DNA of 64,000 nt from Hyalangium ruber (lineage in GTDB: Bacteria; Myxococcota; Myxococcia; Myxococcales; Myxococcaceae), in assembly GCF_034259325.1 (NCBI RefSeq), contig NZ_JAXIVS010000007.1:248001-312000 (forward strand), in the 5' to 3' direction. Positions 21,877 through 25,581 of the stretch are shown in pieces. The position numbers and the translations under genes were made by a program. A model generated the notes under the pieces. The model had not been told where the DNA came from and did not search any database. It was given only the letters and a program-made list of their open reading frames with translations. Each line of letters starts with the position of its first letter. The stretch's first letter is position 1.

Positions 21877-22389
21877 TCAATCGCTGGTCACGAGCAGCGG
21901 CGCCGTCAGCGGGCGCTCCTCGCAGTCGCGCGCGGAGCCATCCTCCCAGGCCAGCATCAGGAAATCGGCCGGCCCCTCGAGGGCGATGATGGGGTGGTGC
22001 CAGACCCCGGCGCGGTAGTTCACTCCTTGTCCGGGCCCACAGAGGAAGGCCCGCAGGCCGGCGAGATCCGGCTCGCCCTGGGCATCATCCGGGCAGACGA
22101 CGACCAGGAAGCGCCGGCAGGCCATGGGCACGAACATCTGCGTCGAGCAGGGGTGGCGCTCCAGCAGACGCACCTGGAAGGGCAGCGCCTTGGGTACCGA
22201 GTGGAACACGGCCAGGTTCGGCCGCGCCTCGGGCCGGCTGCTGGCGAGCTGGGCGACGTGGTTGTACCGGGTGGCCGTGCCCTGGTTGGCGCTGGCGCCT
22301 CCGGCGAGTTCCGAGCCAATGACTTCCCCGAATGGGGCGAAGGCCTCTCGTGTGAGGGGCTGTGCCTTCAATGGAGCGCGTGTGCTCAT
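21877..22389 (-). CDS. allA: Ureidoglycolate lyase
   Basis: Splits ureidoglycolate into glyoxylate and urea, a late step of purine/allantoin breakdown. The 170-residue length and the conserved blocks fit AllA: the N-terminal LTREAFAPFGEVI, the metal-site HPCSTQMFVPM segment, and GQGVNYRAGVWHHPIIAL near the C-terminus. Together with xanthine dehydrogenase at 13.6-17.4 kb it suggests purine catabolism, although urate oxidase and allantoinase genes are not in the window. It lies 68 bases downstream of the DUSAM gene in the same direction. Confidence 0.88.
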   Translation of the reverse strand: MSTRAPLKAQPLTREAFAPFGEVIGSELAGGASANQGTATRYNHVAQLASSRPEARPNLAVFHSVPKALPFQVRLLERHPCSTQMFVPMACRRFLVVVCPDDAQGEPDLAGLRAFLCGPGQGVNYRAGVWHHPIIALEGPADFLMLAWEDGSARDCEERPLTAPLLVTSD

Positions 22390-22457
22390 TCGAGAGAATC
22401 TTCGCTCCGTTCTGGCCTATGACGCCAGCACGGTCCGGGCTCGCAGTGGCGCGACTG

Positions 22458-22844
22458 CTACTCCACTTCACCGAGGCATTCCAGCTGCCCCTCAGCAATG
22501 TCCCGGTAGTGTGGCACGACCTCGACAGCCAGGATCTCACGCATCTGCTGACATGCCCCCTCGAGGTCCCCCGCATCCCGCAGGCGGTACATCTGGTGCA
22601 GTCCTCGTGAGAGTCGGCGCGAGCCCTCCGTGATGCGGCGCCGGATTTCGTGGAGCAGCGTGGTGGCGCTCTCCGTGGAGGTGAGAGCCGCTTCCGCTTC
22701 TGCCTCATGGATCGCCACCGTTGGAGCGGTGCGCCGGAGGAGGGCGCGTGCCTCGTCAGTGAGTACAAGCGGCTCGCCCTGCTGCACCCGATTGTCCAGC
22801 ATCCGGATGGGATACCAGTCGTCCTCCAGGTTCTTCTCCGTCAT
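22458..22844 (-). CDS. DUSAM-domain protein
   Basis: A 128-residue protein matching the DUSAM family, a paralogous family known from Myxococcus and Stigmatella genomes. Recognisable segments are a tryptophan-proline start (DDWYPIRMLDNRV), QGEPLVLTDEARALLRRTAPTVAI, LLHEIRRRITEGSRRLSRGL, MYRLRDAGDLEGACQQMREILAVEVVP and IAEGQLE. It is all-alpha by appearance, with no signal peptide. The function of DUSAM proteins is unknown. The ATG is preceded by AAAGGG inside the upstream lipoprotein gene and sits two bases after that gene's stop, so the two are translationally coupled. Confidence 0.88.
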   Translation of the reverse strand: MTEKNLEDDWYPIRMLDNRVQQGEPLVLTDEARALLRRTAPTVAIHEAEAEAALTSTESATTLLHEIRRRITEGSRRLSRGLHQMYRLRDAGDLEGACQQMREILAVEVVPHYRDIAEGQLECLGEVE

Positions 22845-22846
22845 CT

Positions 22847-23383
22847 TCACAGCCCTTTCTTGCCGGGCGGCCAGCACATCCCGAATGGCCAGTCTTGCTG
22901 TCCCTCACAGCGTCGGAGGCAAGCGTAACAGGGGCCTTGCCAGTTCGGTTCGGCCTGGCAAGCCACGTAGTTTCGGATGCACTCCTGTTTCCACTCTGGC
23001 AAGTGGGTGTTGTTGGCGAAGTCATCCGCCTTTGCAGCGTCTGCTTCTGCTGCCTCCTCACCATCCTGTGTGGCCATCGTCGCTGTCTCGGTCCGCACGT
23101 CCCCGCCGAGTTGCTCCAGGACGGAGAGGATGCGTGCCGCTTCCAGGGGATCCGCGCCACATCTCTCGACGAAGGTGAGGGGGTGGTTCTGGATACAGCA
23201 GCTCATCGAGTTCCAGCAGGTTCCAGCAGCCTGCGCCAAGTAGATCGGGTCGCTCGGGGCGATGGAGTGGCTCGCCTCGGGCTGACGGCTCGCCGTGGAG
23301 TGAGCCCCGGAGGAACAGCCCCCCATCAGGCCCGTGAGGATGACAGGCAACCAGGGCGCAAGGGCGCGACTCAGTGATTTCAT
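22847..23383 (-). CDS. Cysteine-rich lipoprotein of unknown function
   Basis: A 178-residue predicted lipoprotein: a signal peptide ends in LMGGC with the lipidated Cys23. The mature part has ten more cysteines in two clusters: CWNSMSCC...VERC (about 57-75) and a C-terminal module QECIRNYVACQ...CYACLRRCEGQQDWPFGMCW. A linker of acidic and Ala residues separates them. The C-terminal CxxC/RCEGQ..WP module reminds me of small cysteine-rich C-terminal domains in myxobacterial secreted proteins, but I cannot name a family. It is coupled to the following DUSAM gene (two-base gap). Confidence 0.75.
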   Translation of the reverse strand: MKSLSRALAPWLPVILTGLMGGCSSGAHSTASRQPEASHSIAPSDPIYLAQAAGTCWNSMSCCIQNHPLTFVERCGADPLEAARILSVLEQLGGDVRTETATMATQDGEEAAEADAAKADDFANNTHLPEWKQECIRNYVACQAEPNWQGPCYACLRRCEGQQDWPFGMCWPPGKKGL

Positions 23384-23453
23384 GAATTACGTTATAGAAG
23401 ACCGGGCGCGGAGGGCTGAAAGTCAATCAAGGGAGGCTGAGGTGTCGCCCCCA

Positions 23454-23469
23454 GGCAAACCATGCGCCT
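23454..23469 (-). promoter_or_regulatory. Candidate sigma-54 promoter for lipoprotein-DUSAM operon
   Basis: Read on the minus strand the element is AGGCGCATGGTTTGCC. It keeps the invariant GG and GC with the correct spacing and the TTGC of the -12 box, but the -24 box is imperfect (AGGCGC instead of TGGCAC). The lipoprotein start is about 70 bases downstream, and the triple palindrome is about 145-230 bases upstream, a normal enhancer distance. Confidence 0.4.
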
Positions 23470-23611
23470 CGCGCCCCGGACATCCTTCATGAACTGGCTG
23501 TGGGCCTCGCATAAGGGAACGCCGTTCGACGAGTCATGCCTTCGACGAGAGTTCCTCCGCTTCTTTCGATCGCCCTACTCTGCACATCCCTCGTGTGGCC
23601 CTGGCTCCCAC

Positions 23612-23682
23612 TTCCAACGGGTTGGAACCAGGCCGCACTTCCAACGGGTTGGAACCGGGCGCTCACTTCCAACGGGTTGGAA
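23612..23682. repeat. Three tandem 16-bp palindromes, 27-28 bp apart
   Basis: Exact copies of TTCCAACGGGTTGGAA lie at 23612-23627, 23639-23654 and 23667-23682. Each is an inverted repeat of TTCCAAC around a GG centre, preceded by CAC. The spacing of 27 and 28 bases puts successive copies slightly less than three helical turns apart. The array looks like a set of operator or enhancer sites for a dimeric regulator. Confidence 0.85.
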
Positions 23683-23690
23683 GTGAGCGC
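23659..23690. terminator. Perfect 15-bp-arm hairpin, possible terminator
   Basis: The third palindrome copy is extended to arms of 15 bases (GCGCTCACTTCCAAC and its complement) around a GG centre. It sits 32 bases after the stop of the minus-strand endonuclease gene, where a terminator would be expected, but no clear U-run follows on that strand. It may therefore be only a strengthened protein-binding site. Confidence 0.4.
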
Positions 23691-23721
23691 CTATCCTCGC
23701 GTGGATTTTCAGAGGGTTACG

Positions 23722-25428
23722 TCAGTACGCGGTGCCGTTGGCGCGCTTGCCCGGCGAGGACGCGGTGCTCCCCACGCTGGTGTGTAGGACAAAGGAGCCA
23801 GTGCTGCTGCCATCCGGGCTCCGGTTGGCCGACACGCCGTCGGTGCCCGAGAGCGACGAGCTATAGGTGAGGGTGTCCATCGCCGTGCCCGACGCGTTCT
23901 TCAGCGTCACGGTGTCCCCGCTGTTGGACAGGTTGAGCTGCGCGGTCGAGGCCCCCACCGCGTTGGTCAGCCCCGCCGGGATGCCAGCAGCCGCCCCGAA
24001 GACCACGATCGCCTTGCCCGCGGCCAGGCTCGTGCCGCTCGCGAAGGTGTGCCGCGTGCCCGTGGCGTCGGAGATCGTCCAGCCCGACAGGTCCACCGCC
24101 GCGGTACCCGAGTTCACCAGTTCCACGAACTCGCCGTTCACGTCCGAGCCCGCCTCGTTGGCCAGCACCTCGTTGATGAAGACCTTGCCCGTGCCCGTCG
24201 GCGTGGTGGTGATGGTGAAGGCCGTGTTGCTCATGTCGGTGAGGGCGGAGTTGGACGCATCGCTCACGCGCACCCGCGCGGCGGTGGAGGCGGTGCTCGG
24301 CACCGTCCAGGTGTAGCTGCTCGCGGAGGCCGCCGTGCTGGAGGTGATGACGGTCCAGGTGCTGCCATTGAGCGTGTACTCCAGCTTCACGTTCGTCACG
24401 CCCGTGGCCGCCCAGGTGATGCTCTGCGAGCTGCCCGCCGTGAAGCTCTCACCGCCATTGGGCGAGTTCACCGTGACGCCCGCGGTCACCGTGTCGCTGG
24501 GGATGAGGAAGTCCTTGATGACGGCCATGTGCTGCATGTTGGTGGCGCCGCTGTCGGAGCTCAGCGCCGGGGAGATCTCCGAGATGGGCGAGTAGACGCG
24601 CGTATCAATCACCGTGCCGGCGGCGAAGCTGCTGCCGCCGATGACGGTGGCCGTCTGATAGGCACGCAGGTCGCTGTCGACGAGAACGTGGTCATACGGC
24701 TTGCCGCGGCTCGCGTTGGTGTTGGTGTTGCCGTTGCGGTCGGCCGGGTACGGGGACGCCGTCGACACCACCTGCGAGAAGGTGGAGAAGGCGGCCTCGG
24801 AGCGGCTGTCGGTGTTGAAGTCACCACCGATGGCCAGGTAGTCGCCCGTGGGGATGTTGGCCTTGATGAAGTTGACCAGGTTGACCGCCTCCGTGTTGCG
24901 CACGCTGGAGCTGGCCGTGAGCAGGTGCACGCTCACCACCCAGAGGTCCTTCGGGCCGGGGACGTCGATGCGGGCCCAGGCGAAGTCACGGTTGGTGACC
25001 TGGTTGTCGTCCCACTCGCCCGAGGCGATGATCGGGTAGCGGCTGATGACGCCGTTGGGGATCTGCGCGCCGGCCTCGCGGTAGTAATAGAAGCTCGAGC
25101 CGAACGCCGTGTTGACGAAGCTCCGGATGGCGGTGGCCGAGTTGTCGCCGTAGTTGAACTCCTGAATCATCACCACGTCCGGATCGGTGCCCTGGAAGAT
25201 ACGGGTGCCGTTGCCAGGGTCGTAGCTCTGGAGGTTGCCACTGGTGGTGTTGGCGGCCATCAGGCGCAGCCGGACGCTGGCCAGCGCGTTCTCCTGGGTC
25301 GCCAGGGCTTCATCGCCCGCTCCTTCCAGTTCCGTGCCTCCACACGCCGCGAGCGTCAGGGAGAGCACGGCCGCCAGCAATCGACGGTCGAGGAGTGAGT
25401 GCCTCAAGGAGGGTTCGATGATTCGCAC
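23722..25428 (-). CDS. Lipoprotein with endonuclease/exonuclease/phosphatase and lamin-tail domains
   Basis: A 568-residue predicted surface lipoprotein (signal peptide LLAAVLSLTLAAC, lipidated Cys29). About 50-320 is an EEP-fold domain: IQEFNYGD carries the metal glutamate, GGDFNTDSR the Asp-Asn pair and KPYDHVLVDS the catalytic Asp-His. A Ser/Thr-rich Ig-like module follows (VNSPNGGESFTAGSSQSITW), then a lamin-tail domain (about 425-545: VFINEVLANEAGSDVNGEFVELVNSG...DLSGWTISDATG). This fits an extracellular DNase or phosphodiesterase. The GTG at 25428 is chosen to place the signal peptide; the frame is open further upstream. Confidence 0.85.
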   Translation of the reverse strand: MRIIEPSLRHSLLDRRLLAAVLSLTLAACGGTELEGAGDEALATQENALASVRLRLMAANTTSGNLQSYDPGNGTRIFQGTDPDVVMIQEFNYGDNSATAIRSFVNTAFGSSFYYYREAGAQIPNGVISRYPIIASGEWDDNQVTNRDFAWARIDVPGPKDLWVVSVHLLTASSSVRNTEAVNLVNFIKANIPTGDYLAIGGDFNTDSRSEAAFSTFSQVVSTASPYPADRNGNTNTNASRGKPYDHVLVDSDLRAYQTATVIGGSSFAAGTVIDTRVYSPISEISPALSSDSGATNMQHMAVIKDFLIPSDTVTAGVTVNSPNGGESFTAGSSQSITWAATGVTNVKLEYTLNGSTWTVITSSTAASASSYTWTVPSTASTAARVRVSDASNSALTDMSNTAFTITTTPTGTGKVFINEVLANEAGSDVNGEFVELVNSGTAAVDLSGWTISDATGTRHTFASGTSLAAGKAIVVFGAAAGIPAGLTNAVGASTAQLNLSNSGDTVTLKNASGTAMDTLTYSSSLSGTDGVSANRSPDGSSTGSFVLHTSVGSTASSPGKRANGTAY

Positions 25429-25581
25429 GTTGTCAGGTCCTGCCCCGGGGGGAGCGGTGGGAGGGTTGACGGAGACACCAGGTCTCCATGGGAAGCAGGG
25501 CTGAAGACCTGCTCCTCCAAGTATCTTTATCGATTTCGAGAGCAGGCGCGTTGCGTGAAACACAGTGAAATACACAATCGC

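What the first reader, a model, noticed from the sequence alone, without database searches (positions are those of the whole stretch)
22458..23682. Cysteine-rich lipoprotein coupled to a DUSAM protein, with three palindromes upstream
Seen: a lipoprotein with ten mature cysteines ends two bases before a DUSAM gene whose ribosome binding site is inside it. A sigma-54-like element (GG and GC at exact spacing) is about 70 bases upstream, and three identical TTCCAACGGGTTGGAA copies are 145-230 bases further up. Known: DUSAM is a myxobacteria-specific family of unknown function. Inference: an exported, possibly toxic Cys-rich protein plus a cytosolic DUSAM partner (immunity or adaptor), switched on by an enhancer-binding protein.
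Basis: partly seen in the sequence, partly recalled or inferred. Interest (0 to 1): 0.7.

Follow-up and report, generated by a model that had tools for sequence, protein, structure and literature searches.

The report
Cys-rich lipoprotein toxin and DUSAM immunity
A small cysteine-rich lipoprotein and the DUSAM gene that follows it look like a toxin and its antidote of the kind social myxobacteria use to tell siblings from strangers, which would give the first proposed role to a widespread protein family of unknown function.

Summary
The gene pair is real and recurrent; the promoter part of the finding is not supported. The 178-aa lipoprotein (lipobox LMGG|C, ten mature cysteines) stops two bases before a DUSAM gene. 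In 12 genomes, 69 of 72 copies of its C-terminal domain (CTD) are followed within 4-72 nt by a DUSAM gene, while only 69 of 102 DUSAM genes have a CTD: the asymmetry expected of toxin and immunity. The lipoprotein is modular. The same short N-terminal module also carries an AHH-like domain followed by an Imm11/SitI6-like gene, and a second Cys6 domain followed by an unrelated ~170-aa partner. The CTD diverges with DUSAM (r 0.56) more than with its own N-terminus (r 0.29). Every CTD-bearing genome in the family also has SitA6. Best reading: an unnamed SitA-like lipoprotein toxin probably moved by outer-membrane exchange, with DUSAM as cytosolic immunity protein. Toxicity and delivery are inferred. 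The CTD shows no nuclease signature. The sigma-54 element is at chance frequency. The palindromes are real but absent from every other DUSAM locus fetched. Thirteen CTD-less DUSAM genes sit beside one conserved kinase, which immunity alone does not explain.

The parts
22847..23383 (-). Cys-rich lipoprotein gene, 178 aa; proposed SitA-like toxin
   Evidence: ORF; lipobox and cysteine count; no Pfam, NCBIfam or PADLOC family
23315..23383 (-). type II signal peptide ending in LMGG|C (residues 1-23); +2 and +7 are Ser, predicting outer-membrane retention by the rule quoted in PMC5562445
   Evidence: sequence; family-wide check, none of 76 lipoboxes has Lys at +2 and 6 have Ala at +7
23102..23218 (-). 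short N-terminal 'CC' module (residues 56-94), shared with lipoproteins that carry other C-terminal domains
   Evidence: alignment A3; search in 12 genomes; other CTDs
22850..23002 (-). Cys6 C-terminal domain (residues 128-178), W...C-x6-C...W.G.C-x2-C-x3-CEGQ..WP...C; proposed toxin domain
   Evidence: 89 distinct homologues, 12 columns at 96-100% and four more at 90-91%; AlphaFold2 pLDDT 82-97 over residues 121-170, two helices
22458..22844 (-). DUSAM gene (TIGR02267 / PF09543), 128 aa, no signal peptide; proposed immunity protein
   Evidence: all-helical model, mean pLDDT 94.9; coordinates
22845..22846 (-). two-base gap between the stop of the lipoprotein gene and the start of the DUSAM gene; ribosome binding site lies inside the lipoprotein gene
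   Evidence: sequence
23454..23469 (-). sigma-54-like string AGGCGCATGGTTTGCC; judged a chance match
23612..23682 (.). three TTCCAACGGGTTGGAA palindromes, 27-28 bp apart, 40-110 bp beyond the 3' end of the neighbouring gene 23722-25575; judged not part of the cassette

Best explanation
The pair is a polymorphic toxin-immunity cassette of the SitA/SitI type. SHOWN: the lipoprotein is built from a signal peptide with lipobox, a short 'CC' N-terminal module, a variable linker and an exchangeable C-terminal domain; the Cys6 CTD and DUSAM form one linked, co-diverging unit. INFERRED: the lipoprotein sits in the outer membrane, passes to neighbours by TraAB-dependent outer-membrane exchange, and the CTD reaches the cytoplasm or inner membrane of the recipient and harms it; DUSAM, a soluble helical protein that is not exported, binds the CTD and protects cells that carry the locus. 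The harm is probably not classical nuclease action, because the CTD has no conserved His or Asp; the twin C-x6-C helical hairpin suggests a disulfide-locked or zinc-holding binder.
For: Linkage: 69 of 72 CTD copies lie 4-72 nt upstream of a DUSAM gene in the same orientation in 12 complete or near-complete genomes; of the 3 exceptions two have a stop within the match and one is a fragment. In a wider sample at least 98 of 136 DUSAM loci have the CTD upstream. Asymmetry: the CTD almost never occurs without DUSAM, but a third of DUSAM genes lack it. Modularity: the same N-terminal module carries an AHH-like domain followed by a protein matching Imm11 (E 3e-5, above the gathering score) and SitI6 (E 4e-4, below its cut-off); a second Cys6 domain, homologous by profile comparison (prob 95.6, E 1e-8), is followed by a ~170-aa partner with no detected relation to DUSAM (prob 0.3); nine CTDs lack the N-terminal module. 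Co-divergence: r(CTD,DUSAM) 0.56, r(NTD,DUSAM) 0.44, r(NTD,CTD) 0.29 over 71 loci; bootstrap difference 0.28 [0.19-0.38]. Window against L036: NTD 45%, CTD 89%, DUSAM 81% identical. Lipobox found in 76 of 86 distinct longer copies. All 53 CTD-bearing genomes of the family carry SitA6 (TIGR02269), against 62 of 96 overall. Some DUSAM genes lie on predicted viral contigs, one beside a serine recombinase.
Against: No toxicity, binding or transfer was tested. The CTD matches no known toxin family and no solved fold was recognised. Characterised or predicted SitA toxin domains are nucleases (PMC10433427) and this one lacks a nuclease signature. A Cys-rich domain that may form disulfides fits awkwardly with a cytosolic immunity protein. 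Thirteen of 38 CTD-less DUSAM genes lie divergently beside one conserved Ser/Thr kinase, which immunity alone does not explain. TraA/TraB were not searched for. Shared ancestry inflates the co-divergence statistics and the SitA6 co-occurrence.
Confidence: 0.7

Rival explanations
1. Toxin-immunity pair, but delivered another way (for example contact-dependent prey killing or release in vesicles) rather than by TraAB outer-membrane exchange.
For: The module is short (about 155 aa mature) and lacks the ~375-aa escort domain described for SitA families (PMC8546572); some Corallococcus copies have lost the lipobox cysteine; one CTD copy occurs in a genome of another family, whose traAB status is unknown.
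Against: A lipobox was found in 76 of 86 distinct longer copies, with residues predicting outer-membrane retention; all 53 CTD-bearing family genomes carry SitA6; the SitA6 proteins read in these genomes are also short, Cys-rich lipoproteins.
Confidence: 0.15
2. Not a toxin: the lipoprotein is an envelope sensor or structural protein and DUSAM its cytosolic signalling adaptor, perhaps linked to Ser/Thr kinases.
For: Thirteen CTD-less DUSAM genes are divergent neighbours of one conserved kinase; the C-terminal half of the DUSAM model aligns with TPR/14-3-3-like helical hairpins, a common arrangement in adaptors, but none of the matches is significant.
Against: The N-terminal module is shared with AHH-like proteins that precede Imm11/SitI6-like genes; the CTD co-diverges with DUSAM more than with its own N-terminus; copy numbers reach 13 CTDs per genome, with CTD-only remnants.
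Confidence: 0.12
3. DUSAM is a chaperone or secretion partner of the lipoprotein rather than an immunity protein.
For: It is encoded directly after its partner and is a small, acidic, soluble helical protein.
Against: The CTD, not the signal peptide or N-terminal module, is what DUSAM follows, and lipoproteins with the same N-terminal module but another CTD have other partners.
Confidence: 0.08
4. One reading: a sigma-54 promoter with an enhancer-binding protein on the three palindromes drives the pair.
For: A literal GG-N10-GC lies 70 nt before the start codon, and three identical palindromes lie further up.
Against: 166 equally good sigma-54-like sites occur in 64 kb; no other fetched DUSAM locus has the palindrome; the palindromes lie directly beyond the 3' end of the neighbouring gene and one forms a perfect 15-pair hairpin in RNA.
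Confidence: 0.05

Closest known systems
SitA/SitI outer-membrane-exchange toxins (Vassallo et al., PMC5562445, PMC8546572)
   Same: Lipoprotein with type II signal; variable C-terminal domain; cognate small gene directly downstream; many paralogues per genome; myxobacteria only; some copies on predicted mobile elements.
   Different: No match to the one family model tested by name (TIGR02269, SitA6) or to any NCBIfam or Pfam model; N-terminal module about 40-100 aa, not ~375 aa; CTD has no nuclease signature; downstream partner is DUSAM.
SitA6/SitI6 (TIGR02269 / TIGR02264; PMC12077181)
   Same: Short, Cys-rich lipoproteins; relatives of the window lipoprotein with an AHH-like CTD are followed by an Imm11/SitI6-like gene.
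   Different: Different N-terminal cysteine pattern; SitA6 is described as having a single toxin type, whereas this N-terminal module carries several.
DUSAM domain, TIGR02267 / PF09543 (DUF2379)
   Same: The downstream protein is a clear member (155 bits against 60).
   Different: No function is recorded in these libraries; the link to a Cys6 lipoprotein CTD is proposed here.
Imm11 / AHH toxin-immunity pairs of Myxococcus xanthus (PMC12077181)
   Same: The same N-terminal module is found on AHH-like proteins followed by an Imm11-like gene.
   Different: The window CTD and DUSAM show no recognised similarity to AHH or Imm11.

Membership tests
SitA lipoprotein toxins | Type II signal peptide with lipobox | tested here: met
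   LMGG|C in the window protein; lipobox found in 76 of 86 distinct longer homologues
SitA lipoprotein toxins | Outer-membrane sorting residues (no Lys at +2, no Ala at +7; rule quoted in PMC5562445) | tested here: met
   Ser at +2 and +7 in the window protein; across the family no Lys at +2, Ala at +7 in 6 of 76
SitA lipoprotein toxins | Shared N-terminal module with exchangeable C-terminal domains | tested here: met
   At least three C-terminal types on one N-terminal module
SitA lipoprotein toxins | Cognate partner gene directly downstream, specific to the C-terminal domain | tested here: met
   69 of 72 CTDs followed by DUSAM; co-divergence
SitA lipoprotein toxins | N-terminal escort domain of one of the six published families (~375 aa) | tested here: inconclusive
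   No NCBIfam or Pfam hit, including TIGR02269; module much shorter. Models for the other five escort domains were not identified, and the papers defining them are not held
SitA lipoprotein toxins | C-terminal nuclease activity | tested here: inconclusive
   No family hit and no conserved His or Asp among 89 CTDs; activity not assayed
SitA lipoprotein toxins | TraAB-dependent transfer, and occurrence only in traAB genomes | not testable with these tools
   Transfer needs an experiment; traAB not searched; SitA6 co-occurrence (53 of 53 CTD-bearing family genomes) is only a proxy
SitA6 (TIGR02269) | Model score over 85.75 bits | tested here: not met
   No TIGR02269 match up to E = 1
DUSAM, TIGR02267 / PF09543 | Model score over the curated cut-off | tested here: met
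   155 bits against 60 and 154.6 against 21.1
Sigma-54-dependent promoter | GG-N10-GC element better than background | tested here: not met
   Score 8 of 12; 166 sites as good in 64 kb

The most novel reading that the evidence does not exclude
A seventh, unnamed family of outer-membrane-exchange toxins with a minimal N-terminal module, whose main warhead is a non-nuclease, disulfide- or zinc-held Cys6 domain, with the DUSAM family as its immunity proteins and a second Cys6 branch neutralised by an unrelated ~170-aa family.
Probability: 0.45. Interest if true: 0.75.

Novelty: new variant of a known kind. Interest (0 to 1): 0.6.

Why it matters
DUSAM is a multicopy myxobacterial family (up to 17 genes in one genome of this census) for which no function turned up in the libraries or papers searched. 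A toxin-immunity role would explain its copy number, its pairing with one small Cys-rich domain and its patchy distribution. It would add a modular toxin family to the identity barcode by which myxobacteria tell kin from non-kin, and a warhead that does not look like a nuclease. One gene deletion and one competition assay would test it.

Tried and rejected
Sigma-54 promoter: at chance frequency. Sigma-70-like promoter: none in 22300-23800. RNA element: no Rfam family in 22000-24500. Palindromes as part of the cassette: absent from all other DUSAM loci fetched; a scan of viral contigs gave only scattered matches, nearly all single sites. Anti-phage defence: no PADLOC family. Phage protein families: no PHROGs match better than E 0.06. 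Fold matches: none significant for DUSAM (best Foldseek E 0.78; VIA-align Z 8.9 over 53 residues, within the range of unrelated helical bundles) or for the lipoprotein (best Z 3.5); this does not show that the folds are new. Sequence matches to solved structures: none for the lipoprotein, only E 0.12 or worse for DUSAM. DUSAM and the ~170-aa partner as one family: not supported. The papers that define the six SitA families (PMC6900543, PMC7490427) are not held, so a mention of DUSAM there cannot be excluded; the open-access papers searched held no relevant mention.

Full report
Observation. On the minus strand, 22847-23383 encodes a 178-residue lipoprotein (lipobox LMGG|C at residue 23) with ten further cysteines, and 22458-22844 encodes a 128-residue DUSAM protein (TIGR02267, 155 bits against a cut-off of 60; PF09543/DUF2379). 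The lipoprotein stop codon is followed by two bases and then the DUSAM ATG, with AAAGGG inside the lipoprotein gene. The lipoprotein has no Pfam, NCBIfam or PADLOC match. The three palindromes are real. The sigma-54-like string is real as letters, but 166 equally good strings occur in the 64 kb window.

Neighbourhood bias. The family search found DUSAM in 59 of 96 genomes over the cut-off and in none of 14 control genomes. In 12 genomes searched with complete listings there are 102 DUSAM genes and 72 copies of the lipoprotein's C-terminal domain (CTD). Of the 72, 69 are followed by a DUSAM gene 4-72 nt downstream on the same strand; two of the other three have a stop within the match and one is a short fragment. 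Only 69 of 102 DUSAM genes have a CTD. In a wider sample chosen from high-scoring DUSAM hits, at least 98 of 136 loci have the CTD upstream. A toxin that needs its antidote, with antidotes that may persist alone, gives this asymmetry.

Anatomy. Among 89 distinct full CTDs, 12 columns are conserved at 96-100%, among them six cysteines, two tryptophans and the proline of WP, and four more at 90-91%. The spacing C-x6-C ... C-x2-C-x3-C ... C holds in 88 of 89. AlphaFold2 gives block-mean pLDDT 82-97 over residues 121-170 with two helices; the N-terminal half is less certain and the linker has low confidence. There is no conserved His or Asp, so no sign of a classical nuclease. DUSAM is predicted all-helical with mean pLDDT 94.9 and has no hydrophobic export segment.

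Modularity. The N-terminal 'CC' module (residues 56-94) gave 95 matches in the 12 genomes, of which 63 carry this CTD. Of the 32 others, those read fall into several types. Three loci of this genome (L017-L019) have an AHH-like domain; in L017 the next gene was scanned and matches Imm11 (E 3e-5) and, below its cut-off, SitI6 (E 4e-4), and L018 and L019 have similar downstream proteins. Many loci have a second Cys6 domain that is homologous to the first by profile comparison (prob 95.6, E 1e-8) but precedes a ~170-aa protein with no detected relation to DUSAM (prob 0.3). One (L237) has a larger CTD whose sequence suggests, by eye only, a PD-(D/E)XK nuclease. Nine CTD copies lack the N-terminal module, and short CTD remnants precede DUSAM at C1:837k and C10:199k of this genome.

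Co-divergence. Over 71 non-redundant loci the distance matrices correlate as follows: CTD-DUSAM 0.56, NTD-DUSAM 0.44, NTD-CTD 0.29. The CTD thus follows a separate gene more closely than it follows the other half of its own protein (bootstrap difference 0.28, 95% 0.19-0.38). The window lipoprotein and L036 share 45% identity in the N-terminal module, 89% in the CTD and 81% in DUSAM. Phylogenetic non-independence was not corrected for.

Link to outer-membrane exchange. SitA toxins are outer-membrane lipoproteins with variable C-terminal toxin domains and downstream SitI genes, passed between cells by TraAB (PMC5562445, PMC8546572). The window lipoprotein has the lipobox and the sorting residues predicting outer-membrane retention. 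All 53 family genomes with the CTD carry SitA6, against 62 of 96 overall; this is nested in phylogeny and only a proxy for traAB, which was not searched. The SitA6 proteins read in these genomes are likewise short Cys-rich lipoproteins. The protein is not SitA6 by model. It could be a further SitA family or a new combination; the two papers that define the families are not held here.

What does not fit. Thirteen of 38 CTD-less DUSAM loci lie divergently beside one conserved Ser/Thr kinase, suggesting either immunity genes stranded on a mobile element or a second use of the domain. A CTD copy in one genome outside the family was seen but not located. A disulfide-rich warhead and a cytosolic immunity protein are an awkward pair unless the cysteines bind zinc or are reduced on entry.

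Promoter claim. The palindrome TTCCAACNNGTTGGAA occurs nine times in the 10.8 Mb genome, in three groups of three, and in none of the DUSAM or lipoprotein loci of other genomes. In the window the trio lies 40-110 bp beyond the end of the gene 23722-25575, and one copy extends into a 15-pair hairpin in RNA. It is better treated as a separate feature.

Verdict. Toxicity, binding and transfer are inferences. Filed as a new variant of the SitA/SitI kind, not as a member of any named SitA family.

Noticed in passing
window 23612-23682; G000:C3:669712-671132; G000:C5:369532-369608: TTCCAACNNGTTGGAA occurs only nine times in the genome, as three groups of three. The C3 and C5 groups lie near paralogous ~230-aa genes, and the C3 group flanks another lipoprotein of this family.
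   Followed up: partly
L228, L231, L232, L233, L234, L236, L238, L239, L240, L242; L157 in this genome: A second Cys6 lipoprotein CTD, homologous to the DUSAM-linked one, is followed by a ~170-aa helical protein with no Pfam or NCBIfam match above cut-off.
   Followed up: partly
L028, L075, L111, L113, L114, L121, L122, L125, L128, L140, L142, L150, L152: DUSAM genes without the toxin lie divergently beside one conserved Ser/Thr protein kinase.
   Followed up: partly
L308 (IMG/VR contig): A DUSAM gene on a predicted viral contig, with a kinase gene and a large serine recombinase nearby.
   Followed up: partly
window 23722-25575 (-): Neighbouring protein with an endonuclease/exonuclease/phosphatase domain and a lamin tail domain.
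   Followed up: no
L237: Same N-terminal module on a larger CTD that by eye resembles a PD-(D/E)XK nuclease; no family match.
   Followed up: partly
L301, L302, L303: Corallococcus-type copies that seem to have lost the lipobox cysteine but keep a signal peptide.
   Followed up: no
L263: A record titled Comamonas sp. KCTC 72670 carries a Myxococcus-type DUSAM locus on a contig of the same length (519574) as one in genome G083; probably a mislabelled Myxococcus.
   Followed up: no
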